Of a stretch of DNA of 57,581 nt, positions 5,613-55,689 are shown piece by piece (the first letter of the stretch is position 1; the number at the start of each line of letters is the position of its first letter). Source of the stretch: a virus. The stretch covers positions 1-57,581 of the IMG/VR virus record IMGVR_UViG_3300013094_000056; one strand, written 5' to 3'. A model generated the notes under the pieces. It was not told where the DNA came from. It saw only the letters and a program-made list of their open reading frames with translations, and did not search any database. A program made the position numbers and the translations under genes.

Positions 5613-5627
5613 CTCAGTCTCTTTCGT

Positions 5628-5981: not shown

Positions 5982-5987
5982 CGGGAA

Positions 5988-6284: not shown

Positions 6285-6298
6285 ATATCACCCTTTGA

Positions 6299-7366: not shown

Positions 7367-8253
7367 CCTACCACCACCGTCCAAGTAATCTGAATGGGAA
7401 GTTCAATTGCGCCAGTTATCACTGCCGCTGCAAAAATGTTTGATTCAATGCCGACCGGGAGCGTAATTGTCCACTGCTTAAAACCGGTCGGCACAACAGA
7501 GATGTTGTATTGCGTATCATTCACGACATCAGTGCCATTGGCACCATTCAGAAAACGATTGATCCTACGCTTCAGCCAAGTCGGCGTGAAGACTTTTCCG
7601 TCGCCTTTGTAAAAGGCCCATGTGATGATTCGACGGTAAGTGTCATCGCTCGTCGATGTGTTGGCGAGGCTGATAACCCAATTCGCAAACGTTCCAGAAC
7701 CGCCTGTGCTCGTCACTGTGATTGTCATGGAAGTGCCGGTGTAGGCGGTTATGTATCCCTGCATGTAATTGGCAAGGTTAGAAGCACTTGCGACGCTCAC
7801 CTGATTGCCGACTGAAAAGGCCGAGCCTGTTGCCGGGGTGCTGACTGTGAAAGTGTAAGAGCCAGTCCCGATCGTCGCAGACGTTGTGCTGGTCAGATTG
7901 GCATAGCCTGTGCCAGCGCTGAAGCCATTGAATGTCAGGGAGTTGACGGTGAACGTATTGACATCACCGACTGTCAGTGTTCCGCCGCTGACAGCGAGCT
8001 GCGGACGAATTATTCCGTAAATGCTCTGACCGACAAAATCCAGAAAGCTGCCAGAGATTGGCGCTTGGGTGTATATCGGCAGGTTCAGCTGATTGAACCA
8101 GTTGATGTAGGCTTGAGAATACTGATTGTAAGCAGTGAAAAAGGCCGCAACGTTGTCATCGTCCTGGTACTGCAAATACAGGTACGCAGGGATTGTGTTC
8201 TGGATCGAGGTCGGTCCAGTCACAGGCCAGTTTGTGCTTACGCCAAGTGTCAC
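7363..8253 (-). CDS. Baseplate wedge protein of tail-protein-I type with inserted beta module
   Basis: 296 aa, directly downstream of the gpJ-like gene, where P2/Mu-like phages encode gpI or its equivalent. The N-terminal helical part (YLQYQDDDNVAAFFTAYNQY) and DFVGQSIYGI fit this class. The segment about 197-250 (YRRIITWAFYKGDG, LKRRINRFLNG) is also typical. Between them, at about 119-196, sits a beta module (ITAYTGTS, SGTFANWVIS) that also occurs twice in the fibre at 30519-33287. The assignment rests on order plus weak motifs. Confidence 0.72.
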   Translation of the reverse strand: MTLGVSTNWPVTGPTSIQNTIPAYLYLQYQDDDNVAAFFTAYNQYSQAYINWFNQLNLPIYTQAPISGSFLDFVGQSIYGIIRPQLAVSGGTLTVGDVNTFTVNSLTFNGFSAGTGYANLTSTTSATIGTGSYTFTVSTPATGSAFSVGNQVSVASASNLANYMQGYITAYTGTSMTITVTSTGGSGTFANWVISLANTSTSDDTYRRIITWAFYKGDGKVFTPTWLKRRINRFLNGANGTDVVNDTQYNISVVPTGFKQWTITLPVGIESNIFAAAVITGAIELPIQITWTVVVG

Positions 8254-8254
8254 A

Positions 8255-33315: not shown

Positions 33316-34605
33316 TCAGAAGCCGTGGCTTGAGCCTAGGGCCAAGGAAAGTGCATAAACGTAAACGTCAAGCAGATCGTCGGCGCGTCTAGCAGCGTCT
33401 TTGTCGCCAATGCGGAAACTTGTGACCTGCGAACTAAGATGGTTGCGGGTCAAGCCCTTATAGTTCACAGTCTTGTTGAAGGCGTAATCTGATATTTTGC
33501 ACAGGCCTTGATGGTGATGCGAGGAGACTGCGATTGCGCGTTCATCTTTGCCCAAGGCAGTGAAGCCGGAGTCAATCGGCAGAAGCGGCCAGCCCTTGCG
33601 AGTGCCATGCTGAAGCAAGACAGTGCCGCTGGCCTTGTCTTCAACCCAAATGCCTCTGACACCTTCACGAGCGCCGACTTGCTTTGACAGCTCAGTGATT
33701 CGCGGAAGAACGACATTCGGTATCCAGCTGTTCAAAAGGTCAGCCTCAATCTGGACAATCTCCCAGTCGAGGATGATCAGCGGAATCCCTGCGTATTGAT
33801 TTCGTGCAACGTAGATGATGGCGGTGCCATCGTTCGCGCTGCCAGTCTTGACTGCCGAATCGATGACCGCAAACACGCGATCGCAATTCGTCGGATACGG
33901 AACCGGCAAGCCATTCGCATCCAGCATCTTTTCCATGCTGAAGAAAGCAACACCAGACCAGTCAACGAATTCGGCAAGAATTTCCTGCCTGAAGACGTCT
34001 GGGTGCATCCGCAACCGTTCAGCTTCAATCCACGCCCGGTCAACCAGAGGGTTTGACCAGCTTGGCGCATGAAACATCTTGAAACCCATTTCAGGGTCAT
34101 TGCAGACACGCCAAAAAAAGTTCTCGGTGTCAACGCCATTCGGCGTCGAATAAACCCAGACCTCTGCATTCGGCTTTGTGGCCATTGTCGGAACAATGCT
34201 CTTGCTCCAAATATCGAGCATCTGCGTGTTCTTGGTGAACGCGCCTTCATCGATAAGGATCAAGTCATACTCACGACCGCGACCAGCCAGCTCATTATCA
34301 ATCAGCGACCAGAAGTCAATCTTGCCACCAGTCGAGGTCTTGAGCATCCCTTCGCCTCGGTTTGAAGTCAGAAGGATATCGCGAAGAATGTATTTGATCT
34401 CGTCGTATGGCTCTGTCAGCTGTTTATATGTCGGAGCGAAAATGCCGACCTTCAAGCCTTTGGCTGCAGCATCGCACGCCAGAGTTACGATCTTCTTTGT
34501 CTTGCCGAAACGCCGACCACAGCAAACGCCATTGCGCTTGGACCGTGATCGGTACATATCTGCCTGACCTTCGTGAAAGGTTGGCAGCTCGATGGTGATT
34601 GTCAT
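33316..34605 (-). CDS. terL: Terminase large subunit
   Basis: 429 aa. ATPase: Walker A CCGRRFGKT (28-36), adenine-motif region around FAPTYKQL, Walker B LILIDEGA (115-122), motif III VYSTPNG (150-156). Nuclease: acidic residues near FAVIDSAVKTG (about 243-254), DKASG (about 329) and RRADDLLDVYVYAL near the C-terminus. It pumps DNA into the procapsid through the portal and cuts concatemers. Overlaps the small subunit's stop by one base (TGATG). Packaging strategy cannot be read from the sequence. Confidence 0.93.
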   Translation of the reverse strand: MTITIELPTFHEGQADMYRSRSKRNGVCCGRRFGKTKKIVTLACDAAAKGLKVGIFAPTYKQLTEPYDEIKYILRDILLTSNRGEGMLKTSTGGKIDFWSLIDNELAGRGREYDLILIDEGAFTKNTQMLDIWSKSIVPTMATKPNAEVWVYSTPNGVDTENFFWRVCNDPEMGFKMFHAPSWSNPLVDRAWIEAERLRMHPDVFRQEILAEFVDWSGVAFFSMEKMLDANGLPVPYPTNCDRVFAVIDSAVKTGSANDGTAIIYVARNQYAGIPLIILDWEIVQIEADLLNSWIPNVVLPRITELSKQVGAREGVRGIWVEDKASGTVLLQHGTRKGWPLLPIDSGFTALGKDERAIAVSSHHHQGLCKISDYAFNKTVNYKGLTRNHLSSQVTSFRIGDKDAARRADDLLDVYVYALSLALGSSHGF

Positions 34606-35111
34606 CAGCTTGGCAGACCGCCAGTGATTTTAATTTCCTTGCTGCCCTCGCCATCGTCCTCGCGCGCCTTCTTAAAGCCAGCACGAGTGTGGAGCCAGAA
34701 TTCAGCTGCCTTCTGATCGCCCTCGAGTGCCCGGCGAACAACGCCTCTGGCAATCTTTGCATTGACGATTGCAACTGTGCGGTCGATCTCAGGGCGAAAG
34801 TGCTTCTGCAATGTGTCTTCGCTGATGCCCAAAAGGTCTGCGATCAGCTTGTGTGATGTGCCCACCAAGAGCAAGTCACAAACGCGGCTACGCATTTCAT
34901 CAGTGGCGACGAATGGTGGCACTCCGAATGAACCCTTTGGTGCACCTTGCCTGGTCGTTCGCGGTTGCAGCTTTTTCGTCAGAGAAGGGTCTCGGTTCTT
35001 TATGCGCTCCGCTCTTGTTTCGCGCGCGCTATTTGAACCGGCTATGGCCTTGGCTTTTTTTGCTTTCGGAGCAGCCTTGGCCTTGGCTTTGGGTTTCGGA
35101 TCATCATTCAT
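34605..35111 (-). CDS. terS: Terminase small subunit
   Basis: 168 aa. N-terminus very Lys/Ala-rich (about 5-25), then a helix-turn-helix at about 68-110 (MRSRVCDLLLVGTSHKLIAD then LGISEDTLQKHF), which is the DNA-binding part of phage small terminases. A coiled-coil region (about 112-140) likely mediates the oligomer, and GGLPS ends the protein. It binds the packaging site and recruits the large subunit, whose gene follows directly. Confidence 0.85.
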   Translation of the reverse strand: MNDDPKPKAKAKAAPKAKKAKAIAGSNSARETRAERIKNRDPSLTKKLQPRTTRQGAPKGSFGVPPFVATDEMRSRVCDLLLVGTSHKLIADLLGISEDTLQKHFRPEIDRTVAIVNAKIARGVVRRALEGDQKAAEFWLHTRAGFKKAREDDGEGSKEIKITGGLPS

Positions 35112-35240: not shown

Positions 35241-35747
35241 TTATCGCTCCAAAACCTGGAAAAGGAAAGGGGGTATTTTCACCTCCAGTGTTGAATCATC
35301 CAGCTGCAATATGCTCTCTGTTTTCGTCCTCCCTCTCACAGTAGCTCGCAGGCCATCAAATGCTCCGACCTTTATAAGGACTCGCGCGCCCGCTTCAGGG
35401 AATTTGATTTTCTTGACCTCAGCAGGAGCCAGCTCAGATATCTTGCGCAGATGGTCAAGCTGATTGCTGGAGAACGTTGCAAGGCTGCTCATAAACTTCA
35501 TCGGCGTGAAAGCCGGGCACTTTGAGTAGAGCCTTGCTTTTTCTGCAGCCTCAAGCTCAGAAACCAGAATGAACACGAATGTCGGCAGCAGGGGCATCTC
35601 AACAGGACGCTTGACAGTTTTGCGTGGCACCCTGATCTCGCGCACAACAATGGGAGTCCATGCCGAGAGATCAAGAAGTTTTAGAGCCAACGCAAGTGCG
35701 CCTGTTTTGCTGCCAGAGCATCTCAGAGCGATCCAATCCTTATCCAC
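35241..35747 (-). CDS. NusG-like transcription factor
   Basis: 168 aa from a GTG at 35747 with GGAGG five bases upstream; longer starts up to an ATG at 35789 lack a binding site. NGN-like N-terminal domain (DWIALRCSGSKTGALALALK; then VEMPLLPTFVFILV) and a C-terminal KOW-type segment (ARVLIKVGAFDGLRATVRGR). This matches NusG/RfaH-type factors that bind RNA polymerase and change pausing or termination. A 170-bp inverted repeat lies 44 bases upstream (35792-35961). Phage NusG-like genes are rare; a role in processive antitermination of the leftward operons is an inference. Confidence 0.78.
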   Translation of the reverse strand: MDKDWIALRCSGSKTGALALALKLLDLSAWTPIVVREIRVPRKTVKRPVEMPLLPTFVFILVSELEAAEKARLYSKCPAFTPMKFMSSLATFSSNQLDHLRKISELAPAEVKKIKFPEAGARVLIKVGAFDGLRATVRGRTKTESILQLDDSTLEVKIPPFLFQVLER

Positions 35748-35791
35748 CACAGCCTCCAAAAAATACGAACCCAAGCGACTGGAACCCATTA

Positions 35792-35961
35792 GGTTCCAAG
35801 TTCGGAAAAAATGCTCGTTTCAAGACTCCCCCTAGGTTTACTAATCTCTCTCTTTTCTTAACAGGACAGGGGTTAAGAGTAAGAAGAAAGAGAACCTAGA
35901 GGAACCGGGGGTCAAACACCGGGGGAGTCTTGAAACAAGCAAAATTTTCGAACTTGGAACC
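35792..35961. repeat. Large nested inverted repeat IR1 upstream of NusG-like gene
   Basis: Outer arms 35792-35832 and 35921-35961: GGTTCCAAGTTCG pairs with CGAACTTGGAACC (13 bp perfect), an A/T-rich 8-base segment follows, then GACTCCCCC with GGGGGAGTC in a 20-bp stretch with one mismatch. Inner arms: CTAGGTT near 35832 through TTAAC (35862) with GTTAA (35872) through AACCTAG (35899), with a short loop between. The sequence between IR1 and the nuclease gene at 36100 (35962-36099) has no gene I can support. IR1 shares GACTCCCCCGGTGTTT with IR2 when both are read in the direction of transcription. Confidence 0.9.
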
Positions 35962-36099
35962 ACCTAAGTCATTGTTTTTTGGTAAATGGGCTCCAGCGCA
36001 CCGCCCAAACACCCCTGTCTTAATTCCAAGGCCATTACATCAGTTTCAGAAACTTAGCAGCCAACCGTTTCCCCGGCCAACGACCATCGTCCACCGAAA

Positions 36100-36582
36100 T
36101 TACGAACCTGGCGATTCATCACCAAAAGACAGATTCTGGTTTGGCTTCAGTCCACGAGAAAAGATGAAATTAACTCCAAGAGTCAAAGCTATCGATCTAT
36201 GGCTCGAAATTAAGAACCCATCCCCATCATCAACCACTTTCTCAATGCAGACCGCACCGCTCAAAGAATAGTCGTCAATGTTCAGAAAGACCATGTCAGG
36301 CGTGTTGGAGATCGCCACCAGAAGGCCCACTGCGCAAAGATCATGGCGCATCGCCTTCATCTCTCGCTTCTGCTCTGCCCGAACTTTGTACCTGAGCAAT
36401 GAACCTTCCATCTTGCCGATCTTCAACTCGAGATGGACAACTTGGCCATATTCGCCTGTCGGAACCCAAACATCAGGCAATCCCAGAGTGCTGCCGAACG
36501 CAGGCTCAACCCAGCGAGATTCGCCGTTGGCCGCCAAGCGAACCCAGCTGCGCAGATCATTTTCGCTCTTGAATACATTCAC
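36100..36582 (-). CDS. PD-(D/E)XK nuclease-like protein
   Basis: 160 aa from a GTG at 36582 that overlaps the upstream TGA and follows GAGG. Central motif FGSTLGLPDVWVPTG then HLELKIG fits the PD-x(n)-ExK nuclease core (LPD ... ELK), and RYKVRAEQKREMKAM provides the following helix with Gln. The C-terminal half is beta-rich with NFIFSRG. VRR-NUC and Holliday-junction-resolvase-like proteins share this layout. It may process replication or recombination intermediates. IR1 lies directly downstream. Confidence 0.7.
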   Translation of the reverse strand: MNVFKSENDLRSWVRLAANGESRWVEPAFGSTLGLPDVWVPTGEYGQVVHLELKIGKMEGSLLRYKVRAEQKREMKAMRHDLCAVGLLVAISNTPDMVFLNIDDYSLSGAVCIEKVVDDGDGFLISSHRSIALTLGVNFIFSRGLKPNQNLSFGDESPGS

Positions 36583-36737
36583 ATCGCACCTCGACCTTCC
36601 ATGATGGCGATGCAGGCTTTGCACGTCACCTTATCTTTATTGTCAGTCGTTGTTGGCTGCTTTCCCGGCAGACTCGCAGTGCAATAGGCGACCGCCCTGT
36701 GGCCGAACTTGTCCTTTATCCACGCTCGTTTATGCAC
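36579..36737 (-). CDS. Small Cys-containing protein, unrecognised
   Basis: About 52 aa if it starts at the GTG at 36737, which overlaps the stop of the upstream gene; an ATG 11 codons earlier (36770) is possible. Contains HRAVAYC and KVTCKAC: three Cys in a C...C-x2-C layout that could bind zinc. Basic protein in a run of tiny genes between replication and terminase genes. Start uncertain, function unknown. Confidence 0.55.
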   Translation of the reverse strand: MHKRAWIKDKFGHRAVAYCTASLPGKQPTTTDNKDKVTCKACIAIMEGRGAM

Positions 36738-36957
36738 TGTCTTTGACTTTCTCAAATATGAACCCAACATGCTCGCTGTCCGTCTGCCCAAAGAGGCTGA
36801 GCAAGCGCCAGCCGTCTTCAAGCATAGCATCAAGCGCCTGAGGCAGGTGGGTAGGGTTGATCGTCAATCCGCGAGCATAGGCATAGTGTTTGCCCTTTTT
36901 CAGCCGCGCAAAGCGATAGTCAGGAACCTCTTGCAGCTCCGCCAATTTCTCTGCCAT
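36730..36957 (-). CDS. Small protein, unrecognised (75 aa)
   Basis: 75 aa from an ATG at 36957 overlapping the upstream TGA (TGATG) with GAGG ahead of it. Alpha/beta protein: MAEKLAELQEVPDYRFAR, then ALDAMLEDGWRLLSLFGQ and a strand (HVGFIFEKV). The 'ML..GWRLLS' piece resembles small phage DUF1737-like proteins, but I cannot place it. Part of the small-gene cluster 36579-37386. Confidence 0.62.
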   Translation of the reverse strand: MAEKLAELQEVPDYRFARLKKGKHYAYARGLTINPTHLPQALDAMLEDGWRLLSLFGQTDSEHVGFIFEKVKDSA

Positions 36958-37142
36958 CACCACCACCTCATCTTAAAATAGCTGCACGTATCGCTCATCC
37001 CAACACGCGGCCTTATGCTCTTGACCTTGCCAGAGGTGCGATCCATAAAAGGCGTAGGCGGTGCAGCATAGCAGATGATTTCGTCTTGGTCTTTCTTTCC
37101 CCATTCGCAGTGAATGCAGAAATTCCTTTGTTCATCTGCCAT
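36957..37142 (-). CDS. Small Cys-rich protein, probable zinc ribbon (61 aa)
   Basis: 61 aa from an ATG at 37142 with GGGAG seven bases upstream. CIHC near the N-terminus, then IICY and DTCSYF give four Cys that could form one zinc site, with KVKSIRPRVG between. Small proteins like this often bind nucleic acid or host RNA polymerase. No family recognised. Confidence 0.62.
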   Translation of the reverse strand: MADEQRNFCIHCEWGKKDQDEIICYAAPPTPFMDRTSGKVKSIRPRVGMSDTCSYFKMRWW

Positions 37143-37144
37143 CG

Positions 37145-37264
37145 TCAATCTCCCATCACCGTCGCGACCGCAAAAACCAATGCATATGCGGCCATTGATA
37201 CAACTGCAAATGCGCAAAACAGAACGCCAAGCACCAAGAAAAGTGCATCCAAGATTTTTCTCAC
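37145..37264 (-). CDS. Tiny membrane protein (39 aa)
   Basis: GTG at 37264, eight bases behind GGAGG; TGA at 37145-37147, just before the next gene's start. Product begins MRKILDALFLVLGVLFCAFA, continues hydrophobic through about residue 34, and ends VMGD. Basic start and one long hydrophobic helix: an inner-membrane peptide. Function unknown; it lies between a 34-aa membrane peptide and a Cys-rich protein. Confidence 0.6.
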   Translation of the reverse strand: MRKILDALFLVLGVLFCAFAVVSMAAYALVFAVATVMGD

Positions 37265-37281
37265 TTAGCGATCCTCCAAAG

Positions 37282-37386
37282 TCAGTCGATCATCAGCGTT
37301 GCGATGCAAAGCACCGTCGACGCCACAAGCGCACTCATGAAAATGGTGTAAAGTGTGATGAAAATCCAATCAGGCAACCTCTTCAT
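37282..37386 (-). CDS. Tiny membrane protein (34 aa)
   Basis: ATG at 37386 behind GGAGATGTGAA, the same leader sequence used by several rightward early genes; TGA at 37282-37284. Product MKRLPDWIFITLYTIFMSAL then VASTVLCIATLMID: positively charged start and one transmembrane helix. Follows the primase-helicase gene. Function unknown. Confidence 0.6.
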   Translation of the reverse strand: MKRLPDWIFITLYTIFMSALVASTVLCIATLMID

Positions 37387-37387
37387 T

Positions 37388-39589
37388 TCACATCTCCACA
37401 TTCATGATGTCTGAACACTTGACCAAGAATTCCTTGACGCGTGCGGTTGGGTCTTCGTCGCGCTGAACAAGGTCCAGCAGCTCATTGTTGATTACTGCAT
37501 ATTGCAATCGGCCACCGACCTTCAGCCGCTTGTTGAAGACAGTCAGCCCAACGTCACACATCGACCGGCGCAGCTCATAGTCCGAATCATAAACCCGGCC
37601 TTGAACACCCTGCCTGATGAATCCGACAACGTCCTTGATCAGAACGCCCGCTGGCTTGCCCATCTCTTTCAGCGTCTCAGCGATGGCGGCTGCCTCGCCC
37701 TGAGCTTCGGACCGGCTGCCCTCAATCATCTCACGCTTGCGGTCTGTCATCGGAGCACGCTCGCTCTGGGTGACGTAGTCTTCAAAGTTCTCTGCCCAAT
37801 ACTTGATGATGCTCAAGCCACCACCATTGATCCACCGGCGCAGCTCATCGAACTTGTTCTTCGGCCATGGCACTTCTGTCACTTCTGGATAGAACCAGCG
37901 CCGATCATCATTTTCCATCTTCAGCGCACGCATGGAATTGGACGATGCGAGCACATGGCACCAGTTTTCGATTTCGTACTGGCGCATGTATTTGCGATTG
38001 ACCGAAATATCACGATCTGTGATCACTGACTTCAGTGCGTGATAGGCTTTCCATGATGATCCTGAATAGATCTCGTTGACGATGGCCAGTCGCTTGTTGG
38101 CGATCCAGTCATTGAAGGTGCTCGTGATGTCGTTCTCGCTAGGATAACTGACATTCTGAACGCCTACCAGCGGCCCAAGCACGCTCGCCCCCAGCGTTGT
38201 CTTTCCGACGCCTTGACGTTCGCTGATCAGCAACATGCCATAGCTCATACGCACATCAGGACGCGCAATCAACGTTGCGCACCAGCGCAAAGCCTCTTTG
38301 CGTTCGCTATCGTTCACGAAAAGGTATTCCATGAAGTCCAGGAATGGCTTCGGGTTGCCTACCTTTGGGGTGATCGTCGAAGGCACATGAAGGTTGATCG
38401 CTGAGGAGCCTCTGAACGTCACCAGAAGCCCTTCATGGTCGGGTCGGTAGCAGATGCGTGCCGATCGTCCCTGATAGGCTTTCACGATCAAACGGCATGT
38501 GTCGCTGACATGGCTGAAGCTGGCCAGCATTTTGTTCAGCACCGCTTCACTGCGCATGATCTCTGGCATTTCGGTGCAAACGAAGATGTCTGCCTCTTCG
38601 ATATATGCCCACATGCCTTTGAATGATTCACGCAGGATGAAGCTCGGACGACCGCCGTTCGGCCCCACAAAGGTGTCGGTTGCCCATGTTGCAGGGTGCA
38701 GACAGTCCCTGAAGCTCGGTCCGGTGTAGATCGGTTCAGCGCCGCCTGCTTTGCCGAACATCTCATCAGGAAATTTGTCAGCCAAGTCGAAGCTCGCTGG
38801 GAACTCGTCTGTGAACTGGATGGTGAAGGTCGGCATCCGCAGCTGCTGGCTGATTCCTGGCACGGCTGCCCGGCCTGGATCGTCGTTGTCTGCTACGATG
38901 TAGGCGCGTTTGATGCCTGCTTTCTTCAGCACGGCCCAATCCGTGCGATATGGGCTCAGTGCTCCACCGATCCATCCCACGTGCCCTGCGCCGCCCATCT
39001 CACGACCCCAAGGGTGATCAGCCAGCGCCTTGCGAGCTTCGGCTGTCTTGCCCTCGACCATCCATTGCACATAGGCAGCCGCCTTTGCGCCTTCATGGAT
39101 GAACACTGTGGTGTGATCCTTCAGTGTTTCCACCCCGAACAACGGCAATGGGCCGTCTGGCTCGCAATAGCGCCATTGGTCGTCGTCCCAATAGGTCAGC
39201 GGCACGTACGCCTTGCCACCATCTTTTTCCATCCGCACCTGGACCATGACAATCAGGCCAGCTTCATTGCGGAACTCAAAGATGTCTTTGCGCTCTGCGT
39301 TCTTGATCATCGGGGGCGGATTGATGATTGACGTCAGCAGCTTAATTTCAGGCCATTCAACGCTGGCCACCGCTGCCGCAATGTTCTGGCGTTCAAGGTC
39401 GGTCGGCGCGTGCTCAAGGGTCGAGCAATCGATCTCGCCACTCTTGCTGAATTTGATGACGGCGACATCACGCCAATATTTGCCCTGCGAATGGCGGACG
39501 ACCGCTGTCTTCAGCGAGCGAGGTTCAGCACCGACCCGGTTCAGGTAATCCCTGATCGATGGAACGTCTGTCAGCTCTTTCAGTTTCAT
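37388..39589 (-). CDS. Primase-helicase (TOPRIM-like plus SF3-type helicase)
   Basis: 733 aa. The N-terminal half has a TOPRIM-like core: VFIHEGAKAAAY (about 162-173) and AYIVADNDDPGR (about 229-240). The C-terminal half is a helicase of the DUF5906/SF3 type: Walker A ERQGVGKTT (457-465), Walker B LAIVNEI (501-507), sensor LASSNS (547-552) and the arginine-containing DDRRWF (561-566). It would prime and unwind DNA at the phage fork, working with the DnaE-like polymerase (overlapping by ATGA). A single protein for both jobs is common in phages. Confidence 0.88.
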   Translation of the reverse strand: MKLKELTDVPSIRDYLNRVGAEPRSLKTAVVRHSQGKYWRDVAVIKFSKSGEIDCSTLEHAPTDLERQNIAAAVASVEWPEIKLLTSIINPPPMIKNAERKDIFEFRNEAGLIVMVQVRMEKDGGKAYVPLTYWDDDQWRYCEPDGPLPLFGVETLKDHTTVFIHEGAKAAAYVQWMVEGKTAEARKALADHPWGREMGGAGHVGWIGGALSPYRTDWAVLKKAGIKRAYIVADNDDPGRAAVPGISQQLRMPTFTIQFTDEFPASFDLADKFPDEMFGKAGGAEPIYTGPSFRDCLHPATWATDTFVGPNGGRPSFILRESFKGMWAYIEEADIFVCTEMPEIMRSEAVLNKMLASFSHVSDTCRLIVKAYQGRSARICYRPDHEGLLVTFRGSSAINLHVPSTITPKVGNPKPFLDFMEYLFVNDSERKEALRWCATLIARPDVRMSYGMLLISERQGVGKTTLGASVLGPLVGVQNVSYPSENDITSTFNDWIANKRLAIVNEIYSGSSWKAYHALKSVITDRDISVNRKYMRQYEIENWCHVLASSNSMRALKMENDDRRWFYPEVTEVPWPKNKFDELRRWINGGGLSIIKYWAENFEDYVTQSERAPMTDRKREMIEGSRSEAQGEAAAIAETLKEMGKPAGVLIKDVVGFIRQGVQGRVYDSDYELRRSMCDVGLTVFNKRLKVGGRLQYAVINNELLDLVQRDEDPTARVKEFLVKCSDIMNVEM

Positions 39590-48197: not shown

Positions 48198-48270
48198 CTT
48201 CGTCAGGAAAAGGTTTTTTGCAAACTTTTTTCACATGAAAAGTTAAATGATTGTTTTTGTGTGAAACTTT

Positions 48271-48327
48271 TCTGTTTTCTTTTTCGTCAGTTTGGGCGAT
48301 AAAGGCTTCGGGCAGCAGGAAACGCCC
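48271..48327 (+). promoter_or_regulatory. Rightward early promoter/leader cassette A
   Basis: TTTTCTTTTTCGTCAG, TTTGGGCGATAAAGGC, then a leader stem GGGC (48310-48313) with GCCC (48324-48327). Same order of elements as cassettes B-E: T-rich tract, (T)TGG(C/G)(G/C)GATAAAGG-like core, GGGCAGC, hairpin, RBS, ATG. Upstream of the first rightward gene. Confidence 0.7.
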
Positions 48328-48345
48328 ACCAAACGGAGACCGACC

Positions 48346-48642
48346 ATGATTCTGAACGCTTTCACCTTCACCCCCACCGGCACCGAAGAACTTTCGTGGA
48401 GCAAAGGTGAGACTCGCGAGATCGGAACCATCGAGGCGACTCTGGGCGGCAAGACCAAGATCGTTGAAGCGGTTCGCTACGAAAATGGCCAGATCGTTTC
48501 TTGGGACTTCACGGGTCGTTACTCGACCGGCAAAAAGGCTTGGCCTGCTTCCGTCAGCATCCTGAACGAACGCGAAGTGATCTGGCACGGTCGCGACGAG
48601 CGCGTGGGTCGCTGCCTTAAAAGCGGCCTTTCATTCAAGTGA
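48346..48642 (+). CDS. Early protein, unrecognised (98 aa)
   Basis: 98 aa from an ATG at 48346 with GGAG eight bases upstream and a promoter/leader cassette in front; the frame stays open upstream without an RBS. Beta-rich: MILNAFTFTPTGTEELSW then ETREIGTIEATLGGKTKIVE. No membrane or catalytic motif. First gene of the rightward arm, likely expressed early. Followed by a strong UUCG-capped hairpin. Confidence 0.68.
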   Translation: MILNAFTFTPTGTEELSWSKGETREIGTIEATLGGKTKIVEAVRYENGQIVSWDFTGRYSTGKKAWPASVSILNEREVIWHGRDERVGRCLKSGLSFK

Positions 48643-48648
48643 CCCGAA

Positions 48649-48666
48649 TGGGGGCTTCGGCCCCCA
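48649..48666 (+). terminator. Stable UUCG hairpin after first early gene
   Basis: TGGGGGC (48649-48655), TTCG loop, GCCCCCA (48660-48666): 7-bp GC-rich stem with a UUCG tetraloop. Next is AACCTTTCGCAGG, with no long U tract, so it may be a partial terminator, RNA-stability element or processing site rather than an intrinsic terminator. Confidence 0.5.
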
Positions 48667-48687
48667 ACCTTTCGCAGGAGATGTGAA

Positions 48688-48894
48688 ATGATTGTTGTGA
48701 AATTCTCGACCCTTGCTGGCGGCGTTTTCATCGAGCAGGATGAAAAGCCTGAATATGTGGCTGAGACTCGCTGCTTTCGTTTCGACAGCAATGGAGGGTC
48801 TGAATTCGCCTATTATGGCGACCTCACGAGCAGCAACCCTGCACCTCGTTGGTACGGGCACGTATTCAAGCAAAGCTCTTTTATTCTGGCGTGA
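48688..48894 (+). CDS. Early protein, unrecognised (68 aa)
   Basis: 68 aa, ATG behind GCAGGAGATGTGAA, a leader shared with several early genes here. Beta-rich with aromatic residues (RFDSNGGSEFAYYGDLTSS) and no signal or membrane segment. Hypothetical early protein. Confidence 0.65.
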   Translation: MIVVKFSTLAGGVFIEQDEKPEYVAETRCFRFDSNGGSEFAYYGDLTSSNPAPRWYGHVFKQSSFILA

Positions 48895-48921
48895 TTCGCC
48901 AATTTTCGCAGGAGATGTGAA

Positions 48922-49284
48922 ATGATCGATGCAGTTGAAATCGCCGTCACGCGCTGTGAGCCTGTTCTGGCTCGCGGCATCAGTTCCTACCAGAACCAGA
49001 ATTGCTGTCGGAGCCTCATGGTGACCAAGGGCACCCTGCCACCTTCAAAGGTGAAGCTCAACATCGTCCCCAATGATCTCCCTGCGAAGAGCAGGTTCAC
49101 TGGCAAGGTCATCCGCCAGATCGCCGAGGGCAACCCTCGCAGGGAAGGCTCTCGCGGGCACCGCAGCTTTGACATCATCATCAAGTGCGACGGAGAGTTG
49201 ACCTACGAAGCTTATCGCCTGATGGGCGGTCGGCCGCAAGACCTTCAGTGGGACCTCGATCACGGCTATGTGGACATTCTGTGA
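48922..49284 (+). CDS. Early protein with C-terminal GGR-DLxWD domain (120 aa)
   Basis: 120 aa, ATG behind GCAGGAGATGTGAA. The C-terminal about 48 residues have NPRREGSRGHRSF, GELTYEAYRLMGGR and DLQWDLDHG. A parallel domain (NPRRAGSHGHRSH ... GGRINDLNWDIAKG) ends the protein at 53277-53858. The conserved pattern NPRRxGSxGHRS ... GGRxxDLxWD suggests a small helical (winged-helix-like?) domain, possibly nucleic-acid-binding. Function unknown. Confidence 0.7.
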   Translation: MIDAVEIAVTRCEPVLARGISSYQNQNCCRSLMVTKGTLPPSKVKLNIVPNDLPAKSRFTGKVIRQIAEGNPRREGSRGHRSFDIIIKCDGELTYEAYRLMGGRPQDLQWDLDHGYVDIL

Positions 49285-49451
49285 TTGCCTACATTTATGT
49301 CTGGTCCGAGAAGCACCAATGCTGGTGCTTCAACGACATCGCCTCGAACGAGGATCAAGCCAAGGAGAAAGGTCGGCTGCTTTGGAAAAGTGGCGTCGCT
49401 GGGGTCAGGATCGACATCACGAAAACTGTGGTGGATCAGCGTCGAAAATAA
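49281..49451 (+). CDS. Early protein, unrecognised (56 aa)
   Basis: 56 aa from a GTG at 49281 overlapping the upstream TGA. Small alpha/beta protein: YIYVWSEKHQCWCFNDIASN then KEKGRLLWKSGVAGVRIDIT. No recognised family. Coupled translation with the preceding gene suggests a shared role. Confidence 0.62.
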   Translation: MIAYIYVWSEKHQCWCFNDIASNEDQAKEKGRLLWKSGVAGVRIDITKTVVDQRRK

Positions 49452-49470
49452 ATTCATCAATTGATTCTTT

Positions 49471-49528
49471 TCTGCTTTTCTTTTTCTTCAGTTTGGCCGA
49501 TAGAGAATTCGGGCAGCGGTTCGCTGCC
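49471..49528 (+). promoter_or_regulatory. Rightward early promoter/leader cassette B
   Basis: TTTTCTTTTTCTTCAG, TTTGGCCGATAGAGAATTC, then stem GGCAGCG (49512-49518), loop GTT, CGCTGCC (49522-49528): a perfect 7-bp hairpin. RBS GCAGGAGATGTGAG and the ATG at 49552 follow. Contains GAATTC, as do C and D. Confidence 0.72.
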
Positions 49529-49551
49529 TGTGTTTTCGCAGGAGATGTGAG

Positions 49552-49848
49552 ATGGCCAAGAACCGCTTCAAGACCCCGATCCTCATTTTCGTCATGACCG
49601 ACGAAGCAGCCTCAAAGCTGGCAGCGACCATCCCTGGATCGCGCACACTAAACAGCATGACTGGACCCCTCAAGTTCCGCATGGCCATGGTTGATCACGC
49701 CAACGGCGAGTACGAAACGCTGATCGCCACCCCTGAGTGGCTGACCGGCTGGCGCGCGGCGATCGGGACCGACATTCGGTTCTCCGTCGATTTTGATGAG
49801 TCGCTCATTCCGCTTGCGCAAGGGCTGGTTCCTGTCGGCGCAAAATAA
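49552..49848 (+). CDS. Early protein, unrecognised (98 aa)
   Basis: 98 aa, ATG behind the cassette B leader. Starts MAKNRFKTPILIFVMTDEAA; a hydrophobic strand near the start and mixed alpha/beta parts. The centre contains RTLNSMTGPLKFRMAMVDHA. No membrane segment certain, no known family. Confidence 0.66.
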   Translation: MAKNRFKTPILIFVMTDEAASKLAATIPGSRTLNSMTGPLKFRMAMVDHANGEYETLIATPEWLTGWRAAIGTDIRFSVDFDESLIPLAQGLVPVGAK

Positions 49849-49865
49849 TTCACCAACTGATGTTT

Positions 49866-49925
49866 TTTTGCTTTTCTTTCTGTCGGAATTGGCGGAAAGA
49901 GAATTCGGGCAGCGGGTCGCCGCCC
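49866..49925 (+). promoter_or_regulatory. Rightward early promoter/leader cassette C
   Basis: CTTTTCTTTCTGTCGG, AATTGGCGGAAAGAGAATTC, then stem GGGCAGCG (49907-49914), loop GGT, CGCCGCCC (49918-49925) with one A-C mismatch. Compared with cassette B both arms differ yet still pair, which supports selection on the hairpin. RBS CAGGAGATGTGAA and ATG at 49949 follow. Confidence 0.72.
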
Positions 49926-49948
49926 TTAACCTTCACAGGAGATGTGAA

Positions 49949-50089
49949 ATGCGTGAAAAAGATTTGATCATTGCCTTTTTGCTGCTGGTGGTCCTTGGCT
50001 GGGCAATAATTTCATGGATCAGCTCAGACGTCAACGATTTCTGCGGAAACGACATCGCCTGCCACACCAAGATGGAGGCACCGCAGTGA
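49949..50089 (+). CDS. Tiny membrane protein (46 aa)
   Basis: 46 aa, ATG behind CAGGAGATGTGAA. N-terminal charged MREKD, one transmembrane helix (about 6-24, LIIAFLLLVVLGWAIISWI), then a short polar tail with two Cys (FCGNDIACHT). Type-II-like topology guess. Early gene, function unknown. Confidence 0.62.
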   Translation: MREKDLIIAFLLLVVLGWAIISWISSDVNDFCGNDIACHTKMEAPQ

Positions 50090-50253
50090 TCGTTCCTCAG
50101 CGTGCACCTCTCGGCAGCACAGGTCGGGTTTCGTCCGAACAGTCTTGGCCCCTGCGAGGCTCCGAGGGAACAACCTTCGCAGATCGTTGCCCGGCTGGCC
50201 AGACATATGCAGAGCGCCGTGATGCTTTGCTCAAAAGCAAAGGTCTCAAGTGA
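50086..50253 (+). CDS. Early protein, unrecognised (55 aa)
   Basis: 55 aa from a GTG at 50086 overlapping the upstream TGA. Polar: VPQRAPLGSTGRVSSEQSWP then CPAGQTYAERRDALLKSKGL. It may be a small regulatory or accessory protein. Coupled to both neighbours by overlapping stop/start codons. Confidence 0.6.
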   Translation: MIVPQRAPLGSTGRVSSEQSWPLRGSEGTTFADRCPAGQTYAERRDALLKSKGLK

Positions 50254-50561
50254 TGGGAAAATTCGAAAAAACAAATGACCCTATCCTTCTCGATTTTCTG
50301 CAGGAATGGCTTGATTGGGTCGATGATGGAGCGCAAGACAGTAAACCTTTCTTGAGAGGTTGGGGGCTTTGCAGCAACACCAGGTCAGAGCTTCAAAGGT
50401 GTTCGCTCAAGAGTGCCCTCTCAGAAGATTTTGGTGCCATTAATGCGAACTTGCCTTTCTCAGACGCCAATGAATATGCGCATCGCGCAGATGAAAGAAC
50501 TCAGCATGAGTGCCCGAAGCGTTTGGCTTGGGTCAAGGCAAAATTGGGGATTGATCAGTGA
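50253..50561 (+). CDS. Early protein with FLxEWL-type domain (102 aa)
   Basis: 102 aa from an ATG at 50253 (TGATG). Contains LLDFLQEWLDWVDDGA, then GLCSNTR, then FSDANEYAH and CPKRLAWVKAKLGI. The same pattern (FLxxWL ... GLC ... PF ... RLxWVRKxL) appears twice in the protein at 56298-57449. Together they define a small family spread over the early arm. Function unknown. Confidence 0.68.
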   Translation: MGKFEKTNDPILLDFLQEWLDWVDDGAQDSKPFLRGWGLCSNTRSELQRCSLKSALSEDFGAINANLPFSDANEYAHRADERTQHECPKRLAWVKAKLGIDQ

Positions 50562-51037
50562 ACCTTTTCATCGTCAACACCTGCCCGATCCAAGCAGCCA
50601 AAGAGCTCGATGATGTTCGGGTCATCAAGATCGCTCTCGAGGCGACACAGATCCTTTGCACCGTTCTCAGCCAGAAAGGAATCGCAGTTCCATACAAGCC
50701 GACTCACGCCAATCACCCGGTGACTGTTTGGGCAGGGGCGGATGATCGCAATGCCAATTGGGTCTACAACTATGCCTATGCATTGTGCGATGTCTATGAA
50801 TTGTGGACTGGCAAAAAGCACGCTTGCATCGCTGTCCTCGATCAGCTGAACGATCACATACCAGAAGCCGAAGACCCCATCGATTTCCAGAACAGCGCCC
50901 GCAACGGCGCATTGGACTTCAGCCACCTGCCAGTGACAGAGGCATATCAGCAATATCTTAATGCCCGCTACCAGACAGGCAAACGCTCACCCAAATGGAC
51001 TGGCAGGCAATTTCCTTCCTGGTATTGCCCTTTCTGA
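50558..51037 (+). CDS. Conserved phage protein of unknown function (159 aa)
   Basis: 159 aa, ATG overlapping the upstream stop. The pattern FIVNTCPIQAAKELDDVRVI then KIALEATQILCTVL, YKPTHANHPVTVWA, and SPKWTGRQFPSWYC is that of a widespread phage family whose members I remember as 'MNIFV...A......V.KM.LE.AQLL'. Its biochemical role is unclear to me. No signal or membrane segment. Confidence 0.66.
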   Translation: MNLFIVNTCPIQAAKELDDVRVIKIALEATQILCTVLSQKGIAVPYKPTHANHPVTVWAGADDRNANWVYNYAYALCDVYELWTGKKHACIAVLDQLNDHIPEAEDPIDFQNSARNGALDFSHLPVTEAYQQYLNARYQTGKRSPKWTGRQFPSWYCPF

Positions 51038-51048
51038 AAGGATACAGT

Positions 51049-51237
51049 GTGAACAATACAGAGCATATCAGCATTTTGCGCCGCTTACGCAACAACCTCA
51101 GTGGCGAAGAAAAGGCTGCTTTGCGTCACATGCTCAATCGTCTGGAGAATTTCGAGAACAAGCTCAAAACAATCAATCGCATGTCATACATCAAACGCGA
51201 TCACGAAGGAAGGGACGATGAAGAGCAGCAAGCGTAA
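51049..51237 (+). CDS. Small helical protein, unrecognised (62 aa)
   Basis: 62 aa from a GTG at 51049 with AAGGA upstream. Very charged helices: ILRRLRNNLSGEEKAALRHM and LNRLENFENKLKTINRM. Possible coiled-coil dimer. Overlaps the next gene by 20 bases. Function unknown. Confidence 0.62.
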   Translation: MNNTEHISILRRLRNNLSGEEKAALRHMLNRLENFENKLKTINRMSYIKRDHEGRDDEEQQA

Positions 51238-51376
51238 CAGCGCCAATCAAAAATCTGATTCGGTCAAGAAAAAGGAAGGCAAGCCCCAGCAGAGCAAATA
51301 TTTCCTGAAGGGTGGACCTTACAAATACGGCGAAGACCAAGAAGCTAATCGTGTCAAACGCATCAGAGGATTCTGA
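51218..51376 (+). CDS. Small basic protein, unrecognised (52 aa)
   Basis: 52 aa, ATG at 51218 behind AAGGAAGGG. Lys/Ser/Gln-rich (KSSKRNSANQKSDSVKKKEG), likely disordered and nucleic-acid-binding. It may be an accessory to the following gene. Function unknown. Confidence 0.58.
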   Translation: MKSSKRNSANQKSDSVKKKEGKPQQSKYFLKGGPYKYGEDQEANRVKRIRGF

Positions 51377-51395
51377 TCAAACTTTCGAGGTTTAT

Positions 51396-52130
51396 ATGAA
51401 TGATTCTGTGAAAGAATTGCGCAACGAAGAAGCACTGCTCCACTTGCGTCAGAAATTGCTTGCAGGCGACGACTCTTCAAGCTCGAAGAAGCTGGAAAGC
51501 ATCAGCATCGCGATCGTCAGCCATCGCGTGACGATTTACACCAGCGAGGAATTCGGCCATTTCATCTGCAGCTCGAAGTTCCGTCCGGAAATTCGTGCAC
51601 AAGGCGACCGCATATTCCTGACCAAGGATCCAATCGGGCCAGGCAACTCAAGGCGTCTGGGCAGTGTTTTCAAAAAGAAACATTGCAACGAGATCGCTTT
51701 CGCTTTCGAGCGCAACAAGAGGGACAACCTCAACAAGGCTCTTGGTGATCTGACTTGCTCGAAAAGCCAAGTTGATCTGAAGTGGATCCATAGCGATACA
51801 TGGGAGATCATTTTCAGCGCTGATCAGCTCAAAGAAAAGTTCCCCCACAGAGGCTCCAAAGGCGGAGTGCCCGGAAGGAAATTGAAAGGGTCGATCGAAG
51901 GCGACGAGGAAGGCGCAGGGACGCAGATCGCTGATCAGGTGCCCCAACGTAAGCTGAAAGCCGTCGATCGCATCGAGCGCCCACTAGAATCTGTTTTCTG
52001 GGGTGATGAGGCGATCAAGCTCAAGCGTCTGATCGAGGAGGTCAACAATCACAAGCAGAATATGGGCGAATCCCTGATTTTGTACATTGGCGAAGGTGGC
52101 CTACTGAAAGTCTCCGTGGACCTGATTTGA
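51396..52130 (+). CDS. Early protein, unrecognised (244 aa)
   Basis: 244 aa from an ATG at 51396 with GAGG six bases upstream; an upstream GTG would overlap the previous gene. Alpha/beta protein: SVKELRNEEALLHLRQKLL, then ISIAIVSHRVTIYTSEEFGH, SRRLGSVFKKKHCNEIAFAF and an acidic linker (KGSIEGDEEGAGTQ). C-terminal NMGESLILYIGEGGLLKVSV. No family recognised. It may be a host-takeover or DNA-binding protein. Confidence 0.66.
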   Translation: MNDSVKELRNEEALLHLRQKLLAGDDSSSSKKLESISIAIVSHRVTIYTSEEFGHFICSSKFRPEIRAQGDRIFLTKDPIGPGNSRRLGSVFKKKHCNEIAFAFERNKRDNLNKALGDLTCSKSQVDLKWIHSDTWEIIFSADQLKEKFPHRGSKGGVPGRKLKGSIEGDEEGAGTQIADQVPQRKLKAVDRIERPLESVFWGDEAIKLKRLIEEVNNHKQNMGESLILYIGEGGLLKVSVDLI

Positions 52131-52151
52131 AGAAAATTCACAATTGCGCAA

Positions 52152-52212
52152 TTTTTCTGTTTTCTTTCTCGACAAATTGGCGGAAAGAGAATTCGGGCAG
52201 CAGAAAACGCCC
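52152..52212 (+). promoter_or_regulatory. Rightward early promoter/leader cassette D
   Basis: TTTTCTTTCTCGACAAATTG, GCGGAAAGAGAATTC, then leader stem GGGC (52195-52198) with GCCC (52209-52212). The spacer AACGCCCACCAACGGAGA is nearly the same as in cassette A. ATG at 52230. Confidence 0.72.
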
Positions 52213-52229
52213 ACCAACGGAGATTTAAA

Positions 52230-53219: not shown

Positions 53220-53276
53220 ATCCATGGACTCAGGATGTCCAAACCCAAATACCTGACCAAACCGAAAGGAATGACA

Positions 53277-53858
53277 ATGTCGATTTCAGAAGTAACCCTC
53301 ACCAGCCGTGAAATCATGTTCCTTGCTTCGACCATCTCAGGCAAAGAGGCAAAGCGTGCGGCAGACAAGCCTAGCGCAATCAGCGCATTCACCAAGGCTC
53401 TCGAAAATCGCATCGGTGAATCAAACGCGATGGACTGCCGGTGGGAGATCCTTCTGAGCGAGCATGTCAATTCCGCCCATGCTCTGGCTGGCCAGATCAT
53501 CTCGAAATTCGATGGTGACGAGCCGGAAGAAATTCTGGCATCATTCATCGGAACACCCAACGCAGGCGATTTTCAGGAAACAGTTCCTGTTGCCGCCGAA
53601 ACAACCACTCGTGAAGAGGAAAATGACATGAGCACCAACGAAAATGCCGGTCGTCGCGGTCGCAAAGCAACCGCCGCTGGTCGCAAGCTGAGCGCTGTGG
53701 GCACCGAGAACCCGCGTCGGGCAGGAAGCCACGGTCACCGCAGCCACCAGATCATTCTCGACAATCCCGGCATCACGACTGAGGATTTTCTGGCCCAAGG
53801 TGGTCGGATCAATGACCTGAACTGGGACATTGCCAAGGGTCACGTGAAGGCCGCATAA
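53277..53858 (+). CDS. Early protein with GGR-DLxWD C-terminal domain and possible internal start
   Basis: 193 aa from an ATG at 53277 with AAGGA six bases upstream; an ATG at 53235 lacks a binding site. Helical N-terminal half, then a disordered basic linker (AGRRGRKATAAGRKLSAVG), then the domain shared with the protein at 48922-49284 (NPRRAGSHGHRSH, GGRINDLNWDIAKG). An internal in-frame ATG at 53628 has GAGGAAAATGAC in front, matching the leader at 56298, so a 76-aa short form may be made. IR2 begins ten bases downstream. Confidence 0.7.
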   Translation: MSISEVTLTSREIMFLASTISGKEAKRAADKPSAISAFTKALENRIGESNAMDCRWEILLSEHVNSAHALAGQIISKFDGDEPEEILASFIGTPNAGDFQETVPVAAETTTREEENDMSTNENAGRRGRKATAAGRKLSAVGTENPRRAGSHGHRSHQIILDNPGITTEDFLAQGGRINDLNWDIAKGHVKAA

Positions 53859-53867
53859 GGCCAAAAT

Positions 53868-54032
53868 AGGTTCCAAGTTCGGAAAAAACGCTTGTTTCAG
53901 GACTCCCCCGGTGTTTACCCTCCCTTTAGGTTCCTTTTTTCTCTTCTTCTACTCCGTTGGGATAAAGTAGAGAGAAGATAAGAAACCTTAGAGAGAGTCT
54001 CAAAACAAGGAAAAATTCCGAACTTGGAACCT
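53868..54032. repeat. Large nested inverted repeat IR2 upstream of SNF2 helicase
   Basis: Outer ends AGGTTCCAAGTTCGG (53868-53882) and CCGAACTTGGAACCT (54018-54032), a perfect 15-bp match, then CTTGTTT/AAAACAAG and GGACTC/GAGTCT partial pairs. Inner arms TTAGGTTCC...TTCTACT (53926-53951) and AGTAGAG...AAACCTTA (53967-53990). The outer arms and GACTCCCCCGGTGTTT match IR1 in the transcription direction, while the inner arms differ in sequence but still pair. The helicase ATG lies 23 bases further on. Confidence 0.9.
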
Positions 54033-54054: not shown

Positions 54055-55689
54055 ATGTCTGCTAAAATTGTTGATGGTCGAATCGTCGTTGCCACCCGCG
54101 CAACCCCTGATGTGCTCGTTTTCCTGCCAACGCTTGAGGGTCGGCGCATATGGCTGAAGGGTGGTGGGCTCTCGGTTGAAGACACACCCCACAATCGCTC
54201 TGCAGTTGAAGGCAAGTTCGGCCCTGTCTCTGCCGAGGAAGAAGACGTCAAGATCGTCGGCCTGCAAAAGCGGCAAATGCCCAACTTCAAGCGCAAGCCC
54301 GAGCCGCATCAGATCGAGGCACTTCAGGCGATCGGCGACAAAGACAATTTTGCGCTGTTCATGGAGCAGGGCACCGGCAAGACAAAAGTCGGCATCGACT
54401 GGGCATGCGCTCTTTTCGTTGCTGGAGAGATTGACGCCGTCCTTGTGTTGTCAAAGCGAGGCGTTCACCGTCAGTGGATCGAAGAGGAAGTCGAAAAAGA
54501 CTGCTCTGTTGATTGGGATGGTGCATTCTGGGACAAGAAGGCAATCCCTGACCGCATCCTCAAGAAAGCCGATGGCAAGCTGCTCTGGTTCGGGATAAAC
54601 TGGGACGCCATCAAAACAGCTGGTGGTTTCGCGGCTGCGCAAGATTTTTGCTTGTCCCACAAAAACAGGCTTCTGATTATCGGTGACGAATCTCAGGAAA
54701 TCAAGAACATTAAATCGCTTCGCTCGAAAGCAGCTTTCAAGCTCAAGCGTCACGCCAACCGGCGACTGATCACAACCGGCACCCCAATCGCCAAAGACCT
54801 GACCGACGAGTGGGCACAGCTGATGTGGCTTGATGAGTCAATCATCGGCTGCAAATACATCACAACATTCCGATCGAAATATTGCATCATGGGTGGCTTT
54901 GAGGGTCGTCAGATCATCGGCCACAAGAACATGGAAGAATTCAAGGGCAAGGTCGGACCTCATTCGTTTCGCAGAACGAAAGAGCAGATCGGAATCCTGC
55001 CAAAGCGCTACACTGAGTGGAAGTTCGACCTGACGCGTGATCAGAAAAAGATGATCAGATCAATCAAAGACGATCTTCTGGCCGAGATCAGCGAAGGCGT
55101 TGAGATCAACATCAACACAGCAGCTTCTGCATTCAGCAAGATTCAGCAAGTGGCTTGCGGATTTTTGATCGACCAAGCAAACGAAACGACCCACAGGTTG
55201 ATGCCAGTCGACAAAAACCCGCGCACAATCGCAGCAATGGAGTGGCTGGCTGCGAATGAAGGCAAGGCAATCATATGGTCGGCTTTCATTGAAGACAAGG
55301 CGATCCTCGTCGAGGCGATGAAGGCGGCTGGCATCAGCTTCTGCGAATACCACGGAGCGACCTCAGAAGCAGATCGTAAGGCAGCAAAGGACACATTTCT
55401 CGACCCTGATGGGGCACAGGTACTCATCGCTGGCAAATCGGCCTCTACGGGGCTAAATTTGCAAGGCTTGTGCAATCGTGCACTTTACTACAGCAACAGC
55501 TTCAATGCGATCGACCGCTGGCAGAGCGAAGACCGCATCCATCGAATCGGAACTGTGGGCGCTGTGACGTTCACAGACCTGATAGGGGTCGGCAGCACAG
55601 ACCGACACATACGCCGAAACCTTCTGCAGAAAGAAGGGATCGCCCGAATGAGCTTGGGCGATTATATCAACGCACTGGAGGATTTGTGA
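54055..55689 (+). CDS. SNF2/DEAD-type DNA helicase
   Basis: 544 aa. Motif I EQGTGKTK (104-111) after a Q-like PHQIEAL, motif II GDESQEIKN (about 209), III-like LITTGTPIAKDL, then the second lobe with GKAIIWSAFIEDKAIL, AGKSASTGLNLQG and the SF2 motif VI RWQSEDRIHRIGT. Single-subunit SNF2-like ATPases in phages act in DNA remodelling or recombination. IR2 precedes its ATG. N-terminal about 80 residues (IWLKGGGLSVEDTPH) are an extra domain. Ends overlapping the next ATG. Confidence 0.88.
   Translation: MSAKIVDGRIVVATRATPDVLVFLPTLEGRRIWLKGGGLSVEDTPHNRSAVEGKFGPVSAEEEDVKIVGLQKRQMPNFKRKPEPHQIEALQAIGDKDNFALFMEQGTGKTKVGIDWACALFVAGEIDAVLVLSKRGVHRQWIEEEVEKDCSVDWDGAFWDKKAIPDRILKKADGKLLWFGINWDAIKTAGGFAAAQDFCLSHKNRLLIIGDESQEIKNIKSLRSKAAFKLKRHANRRLITTGTPIAKDLTDEWAQLMWLDESIIGCKYITTFRSKYCIMGGFEGRQIIGHKNMEEFKGKVGPHSFRRTKEQIGILPKRYTEWKFDLTRDQKKMIRSIKDDLLAEISEGVEININTAASAFSKIQQVACGFLIDQANETTHRLMPVDKNPRTIAAMEWLAANEGKAIIWSAFIEDKAILVEAMKAAGISFCEYHGATSEADRKAAKDTFLDPDGAQVLIAGKSASTGLNLQGLCNRALYYSNSFNAIDRWQSEDRIHRIGTVGAVTFTDLIGVGSTDRHIRRNLLQKEGIARMSLGDYINALEDL

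What the first reader, a model, noticed from the sequence alone, without database searches (positions are those of the whole stretch)
53868..54032. Second copy IR2 with matching outer arms but different, still-paired inner arms
IR2 shares GGTTCCAAGTTCG ends and GACTCCCCCGGTGTTT with IR1 in the same orientation relative to transcription, although the two lie on opposite strands about 18 kb apart. The inner stems differ in sequence yet both pair, a covariation-like pattern. Both copies sit within about 25-45 bases of the start of a gene (NusG-like, SNF2 helicase). A shared cis element that couples these two genes is a new hypothesis, as is a pair of mobile (MITE-like) insertions.
Basis: partly seen in the sequence, partly recalled or inferred. 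Interest (0 to 1): 0.82.

Follow-up and report, generated by a model that had tools for sequence, protein, structure and literature searches.

The report
Paired palindromic elements heading phage operons
A DNA element of about 110-170 base pairs with identical 12-letter ends in mirror orientation marks the start of the late genes and the start of a helicase gene cluster in a whole group of uncultured phages; it is not in the RNA-family library and is probably a control site, perhaps read by a phage protein related to the transcription regulators NusG/RfaH.

Summary
The repeat is real. IR2 (53868-54032) and IR1 (35791-35961, opposite strand) share 12-13-bp inverted ends and an inner block. The same element occurs in about a dozen related phage lineages in IMG/VR at the same two places. 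Site A lies at the head of the late operon (between the primase-helicase gene and terS, next to a NusG/RfaH-family gene). Site B lies at the head of the SNF2-helicase cluster. The invariant part is exactly GGTTCCAAGTTC as a sequence at both ends; pairing further in comes and goes. The two copies in one genome are each other's closest relatives, and their orientation relative to the gene varies. This argues against a strand-specific RNA motif and against random MITE hopping. It fits a site read as sequence at its ends. My best reading is an operon-head control site used by the phage NusG-family protein (ops/LoaP-like logic), confidence 0.4. Replication, recombination and mRNA-processing roles remain open. 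No protein binding or transcription has been shown.

The parts
53868..54032 (+). IR2 element (site B), palindromic, 12-bp invariant ends
   Evidence: nhmmer family profile E 9e-39 (this copy is in the profile)
53869..53880 (+). IR2 left arm GGTTCCAAGTTC
   Evidence: identical in the 15 best-matched family elements, left arm
54020..54031 (-). IR2 right arm (GGTTCCAAGTTC on the - strand)
53901..53916 (+). inner block GACTCCCCCGGTGTTT shared with IR1
35791..35961 (-). IR1 element (site A), partner copy
   Evidence: nhmmer E 6e-29 (also in the profile)
35963..35984 (-). outer flank of IR1 (TTTACCAAAAAACAATGACTTA), shared with the flanks of several relatives and found on the other side in two flipped copies
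54055..55689 (+). SNF2-type helicase, first gene after IR2
   Evidence: Pfam PF00176, PF00271; phrog_62 E 1e-91
35241..35750 (-). NusG/RfaH-family protein, first gene of the late operon
   Evidence: phrog_6386 'transcription antiterminator'; predicted NGN+KOW fold, best PDB match RfaH 8phk E 2e-6
36100..36585 (-). VRR-NUC-like (PD-(D/E)XK) nuclease upstream of IR1, named from the invariant G..D..ExK..Q motif only
   Evidence: no Pfam match
53235..53858 (+). conserved gene of unknown function upstream of IR2 ('up207')
37388..39589 (-). primase-helicase (DUF5906), upstream side of site A in relatives
34605..35111 (-). terminase small subunit, second gene after IR1
   Evidence: phrog_309 E 2e-6

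Best explanation
IR1 and IR2 are two copies of one phage cis-regulatory element placed at the heads of two transcription units: the late operon and the SNF2-helicase cluster. Shown: the family exists, it holds these two places, its 12-bp ends are invariant, and the two copies of a genome evolve together. Inferred: the ends GGTTCCAAGTTC are read as sequence by a phage-encoded factor. The best candidate is the NusG/RfaH-family protein encoded right behind site A. It would be recruited to RNA polymerase as the head of the operon is transcribed, as RfaH is at its 12-nt ops site in the non-template strand or LoaP at its leader hairpin, and would carry polymerase through the long operon against Rho or terminators. 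Because both ends are the same 12-mer in mirror orientation, the non-template strand reads GGTTCCAAGTTC in either orientation, which would explain why flipped copies are tolerated. The imperfect hairpin inside would be secondary, for example a pause or a folded leader, and partly a by-product of template switching.
For: Positions: site A in 10 lineages (window, G001/G002, G011/G016, G014, G015, G005, G009, G017, L123, G018) and site B in 9 (window, L022, L023, L024, L026, L036, G005, G018, L131). A NusG-family gene follows the site-A copy directly in 7 and after one gene in 2 of these 10 lineages. The protein is of the NusG/RfaH family. Known specialised NusG paralogs (LoaP, TaA, UpxY) are encoded next to the long operons they serve (PMC7819879), and LoaP needs a hairpin in the leaders of its two target operons (PMC12691694). 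Conservation stops sharply after position 12: 12/12 positions in 29 of 30 arms, then about half. Two isolated phages with a NusG-like protein, phi3LM21 and Nsp-JY10, also carry it just ahead of the terminase genes.
Against: No binding, transcription or termination data. G009 has the element at site A without a NusG-like gene there, and none was found in its 23-kb fragment. The NusG-like proteins are only 17-26% identical to the window's, while the 12-mer is invariant and DnaE is 73% identical. E. coli ops and boxA are not above chance in the window. An ops-like site needs only one copy, so the mirror-image second arm is unexplained. The two isolated phages lack this element. No promoter on the gene strand and no terminator was recognised at the elements.
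Confidence: 0.4

Rival explanations
1. DNA site for replication or recombination: the inverted GTTCCAA-type iterons bind the phage primase-helicase or another initiator, and the two sites act as origin and accessory site, or the cruciform is handled by the neighbouring VRR-NUC-like nuclease and SNF2 translocase.
For: Orientation-blind, invariant DNA ends; G005 arms are further tandem heptamers. The primase-helicase is conserved in the phages whose contigs show that region (38-75% identity). In the window the cumulative GC skew has a local minimum near IR2. Site A lies beside a nuclease gene and site B beside a helicase gene.
Against: GC skew does not turn at the elements in G002, G005, G006 and others. 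G017 (70 kb) shows only the site-A copy. The tight fit just ahead of ribosome sites is not needed for this role.
Confidence: 0.22
2. mRNA-level hairpin for processing or stability (RNase III site upstream of a gene, as between early genes of T7), independent of the NusG-like protein.
For: Elements lie between co-directional genes and mostly end 14-48 nt before the start codon. Several have long stems (IR1, L022, G018, L027). L027 has a hairpin with unrelated arms at site B.
Against: In several members the perfect stem is only 12-13 bp (L007, L041, L024, L042). The arm is invariant as sequence rather than covarying. There is no significant preference for folding of the sense strand (Wilcoxon p 0.18). 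Inner pairing is near shuffle level in about half of the elements.
Confidence: 0.16
3. MITE-like mobile or selfish palindrome kept in step by gene conversion and template switching.
For: Terminal inverted repeats, 110-170 bp size, flips that in L023 and L026 include an outer flank motif, high similarity of the two copies within a genome. Spacer inversion and arm homogenisation by template switching are known (PMC8604942).
Against: Exactly two copies at the same two places in the four contigs that span both (window, G002, G005, G018); 38-75% identical primase-helicases yet intact 12-bp ends; no consistent target-site duplication; no copy elsewhere in these contigs.
Confidence: 0.14
4. Operator pair for an unidentified phage DNA-binding regulator that controls initiation, with looping between the two arms.
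For: Invariant 12-bp inverted sites at variable spacing (113-158 bp between centres); partly palindromic flank motif AAATCAATGACTTA in part of the family.
Against: No promoter on the gene strand recognised near either element; no candidate regulator found; the flank motif is missing in several members.
Confidence: 0.08

Closest known systems
RfaH and its ops site (Gammaproteobacteria)
   Same: NusG-family protein of about 165 aa; a 12-nt sequence in the leader of long operons
   Different: The ops sequence is not above chance in the window. Here the 12-mer is doubled as an inverted repeat about 110-170 bp apart, and the protein gene heads one of the units.
LoaP and the dfn/mln leader hairpins (Bacillus velezensis; PMC12691694)
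   Same: NusG paralog adjacent to its target; the same hairpin in the leaders of exactly two operons
   Different: LoaP reads a small UNCG hairpin in RNA; here the invariant part is the outer 12 bp and the loops are not conserved.
MITE-type palindromes (Correia/NEMIS, ERIC, RUP; PMC2229807)
   Same: Intergenic, transcribed palindromes of similar size with terminal inverted repeats, either orientation
   Different: Two fixed places per phage, no clear duplication, no dispersal in the genome.
T7 RNase III processing sites (from memory)
   Same: Repeated intergenic hairpins just upstream of genes in a phage
   Different: Here the ends are invariant in sequence and the perfect stem is often only 12 bp.
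Heptamer (GTTCCAA)n arrays of bacterial genomes
   Same: Same heptamer, also found as inverted pairs about 150 bp apart in MAGs
   Different: Long simple arrays around other cores, scattered copies; no sign of homology of the interior.

Membership tests
Specialised NusG paralog with leader recruitment site (RfaH/LoaP type) | NGN + KOW NusG-family protein | tested here: met
   phrog_6386, weak Pfam NusG/KOW in relatives, predicted fold closest to RfaH/NusG
Specialised NusG paralog with leader recruitment site (RfaH/LoaP type) | gene next to or heading a long target operon | tested here: met
   first gene ahead of terS, terL and portal genes in the window; likewise ahead of terminase genes in 8 other lineages
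Specialised NusG paralog with leader recruitment site (RfaH/LoaP type) | factor binds the leader element and raises read-through | not testable with these tools
   needs biochemistry
RfaH/ops | ops sequence GGCGGTAGCGTG in leaders | tested here: not met
   2 hits with 1-2 mismatches against 3.9 expected, neither at the elements
LoaP hairpin | conserved UNCG-loop hairpin | tested here: not met
   loops differ between members; no conserved UNCG loop in the alignment
lambda N / rrn type antitermination | boxA in the leader | tested here: not met
   4 hits against 7 expected, none at the elements
MITE | terminal inverted repeats, small size, no ORF | tested here: met
MITE | target-site duplication | tested here: not met
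   flanks differ between the two sides; TA on both sides only in L022 and L036
MITE | dispersed copies at varying loci | tested here: not met
   two fixed places in the four contigs that span both; none elsewhere
Known structured RNA (Rfam 15) | match at gathering score | tested here: not met
   only a tRNA in the window; weak chance hits at the elements
Covarying RNA hairpin | compensatory changes in the inner stem | tested here: inconclusive
   IR1/IR2: 1-2 double changes against 7-13 broken; family-wide own-partner pairing slightly better than chimeras, p 0.01, driven by a few members
Replication origin | strand-bias switch at the site | tested here: not met
   no consistent skew switch in relatives

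The most novel reading that the evidence does not exclude
A phage-group-specific antitermination system in which a NusG/RfaH-family protein reads a mirror-image pair of 12-bp sites, so that one orientation-proof element can be exchanged between two operon heads and keeps them under one control.
Probability: 0.3. Interest if true: 0.8.

Novelty: new variant of a known kind. Interest (0 to 1): 0.6.

Why it matters
If the NusG-family protein reads these sites, it would be a phage late-gene switch built on a NusG paralog rather than on an N-, Q- or put-type factor, with a compact two-site regulon that can be tested in vitro. Whatever the reader protein is, a 12-bp palindromic end pair kept intact at two fixed genome positions while neighbouring proteins diverge to about 40% identity marks a functional site that annotation misses. 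The case also shows how pairing of inner stems can mislead: arm homogenisation and spacer inversion can mimic covariation.

Tried and rejected
Inner-stem covariation as evidence of RNA function: rejected for IR1/IR2. Strand preference from sense versus antisense folding: not significant. Origin of replication from GC skew: suggestive in the window, not seen in relatives. Intrinsic terminator or sigma-70 promoter: none on the gene strand at the elements. Rfam: nothing. Similar DNA in isolated phages and plasmids: none. Bacterial genomes: 48 stretches, mostly (GTTCCAA)n heptamer arrays rather than relatives. Scan hits L008-L011, L014-L020, L033, L038, L040 and L118-L122 are chance or unrelated. 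NusG-like protein by tblastn in isolated phages: only two remote relatives, from the L128 protein, without the element. Literature: no paper on such an element among those found.

Full report
Observation. IR2 reads AGGTTCCAAGTTCGG...CCGAACTTGGAACCT at 53868-54032, IR1 the same ends at 35791-35961. The four exact GGTTCCAAGTTCG sites are the only ones in the window. Two such arm pairs exist against 0.02 expected. Both fold much better than shuffles. The shared block GACTCCCCCGGTGTTT is exact. The stated gene distances are about right: 23 nt for SNF2, 41 nt for the NusG-like gene if its GTG start at 35750 is used. The covariation claim does not hold: the inner arms of IR1 and IR2 are mostly unchanged or broken, with 1-2 double changes.

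Relatives. A pattern of two 10-mers in mirror orientation found 16 stretches in viral contigs, 13 of them of this family; protein searches and a shorter-gap pattern added more. Placed on genes, site A lies between the primase-helicase gene and terS: after the VRR-NUC-like gene and before the NusG-like gene in most; before the VRR-NUC-like gene in G017 (locus L128) and L123; before terS without a NusG-like gene in G009. Site B lies directly before SNF2 in window, L022, L023, L024, L026, L036 and L131, one gene upstream in G018 (locus L126), two genes upstream in G005. Window, G002, G005 and G018 show both sites on one contig and no further copy; the 70-kb G017 shows site A only. G004 (L024, site B) and G015 (L042, site A) come from one sample and carry closely similar copies, so they may be one phage.

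Anatomy. In 15 aligned elements the first 12 bases of both arms are invariant (29 of 30 arms perfect; one mismatch in G018), and conservation falls to about half at base 13. A T-rich stretch follows. The left half is pyrimidine-rich and the right half purine-rich, which a flip preserves. Length is 152-170 bp in the window's nearer relatives and 105-125 bp in more distant phages. Pairing beyond 20 nt is strong in IR1, L022 and L027, modest in IR2, L026, L041 and L034, and absent in L024, L036, L007, L042, G009 and one G005 copy. In several members pairing stops at base 12-13.

Evolution. In all five genomes or genome pairs with both copies, the inner sequence of one copy is closest to the other: window 70%, G002 66% flipped, G004/G015 77%, G005 89% flipped, G018 81% flipped relative to its gene (the table lists the G018 site-B copy in genome orientation). 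Orientation relative to the gene is therefore free. In L023 and L026 an outer flank motif is flipped as well. Template switching between inverted arms is known to homogenise arms and invert spacers (PMC8604942) and can create multi-base compensatory changes (PMC8794818), so partial inner pairing needs no selection on RNA. It does not explain why the ends stay invariant and the places stay fixed.

The neighbour protein. The window's 182-aa ORF (169 aa from GTG) matches phrog_6386. Relatives match Pfam NusG and KOW weakly. The predicted fold (pLDDT 86) matches RfaH and NusG first. It is far more diverged than its neighbours (17-26% identity, against 73% for DnaE). In two isolated phages a remote relative also sits ahead of the terminase genes.

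Mechanism. Invariance as sequence with a sharp edge, orientation freedom and operon-head placement point to sequence reading of the ends. A 12-bp RNA duplex is a poor target for base-specific reading (established knowledge), so DNA, possibly the non-template strand as for ops, is more likely. The NusG/RfaH-family gene beside site A makes recruitment of that protein the leading hypothesis; this step is inferred. Confidence 0.4, with rivals listed.

Limits. All relatives are metagenomic contigs, many of them fragments; hosts are unknown; absence of a second copy or of a NusG gene in a fragment proves little. Arm-based pattern searches by design miss members with changed arms, such as L027, so the invariance of the arms is partly a selection effect. 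The copies found through protein queries without using the arms (L022, L023, L024, L026) also have all 12 bases intact, while L027, found the same way, has different arms, and G005 (L025) has extended ones.

Noticed in passing
window 48229-52217: Repeated intergenic leaders before + strand early genes: TTTCGCAGGAGATGTGAAATG-type repeats and 73-89-nt repeats (TTTTCTTTTTCGTCAGTTTGGGCGATAAAGGC...).
   Followed up: no
window 1679-3295 and 30519-33287: Long 9-nt-period (collagen-like Gly-X-Y type) repeats inside two ORFs on the - strand.
   Followed up: no
window 35500-38000; G002, G014, G016 near site A: Steep GC skew over the VRR-NUC-like gene next to site A in several phages.
   Followed up: partly
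L142 4440-4570, L143 4600-4740: Nsp-JY10 and phi3LM21 share a stretch (..GCGAAAGCTATGAC..) followed by a terminator-like hairpin between the NusG-like gene and the terminase genes; no Rfam match.
   Followed up: partly
L045-L092 (e.g. L061, L074, L079): Bacterial MAGs hold inverted pairs of (GTTCCAA)n heptamer arrays about 150 bp apart around palindromic cores.
   Followed up: partly
L098 (G007) 4072-9702: An 11-19-nt repeat (GACTTTTCTTTTC type) at several sites in the phage whose site-B hairpin has unrelated arms.
   Followed up: no
L041 812-5446: The DnaE match is split into three segments with gaps of about 0.7-1 kb between them, as if interrupted by introns or inteins.
   Followed up: no
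L118, L119, L121, L122, L120: AAATCAATGACTTA followed by GGTTC also occurs in unrelated viral contigs, in L120 as a tandem repeat.
   Followed up: partly
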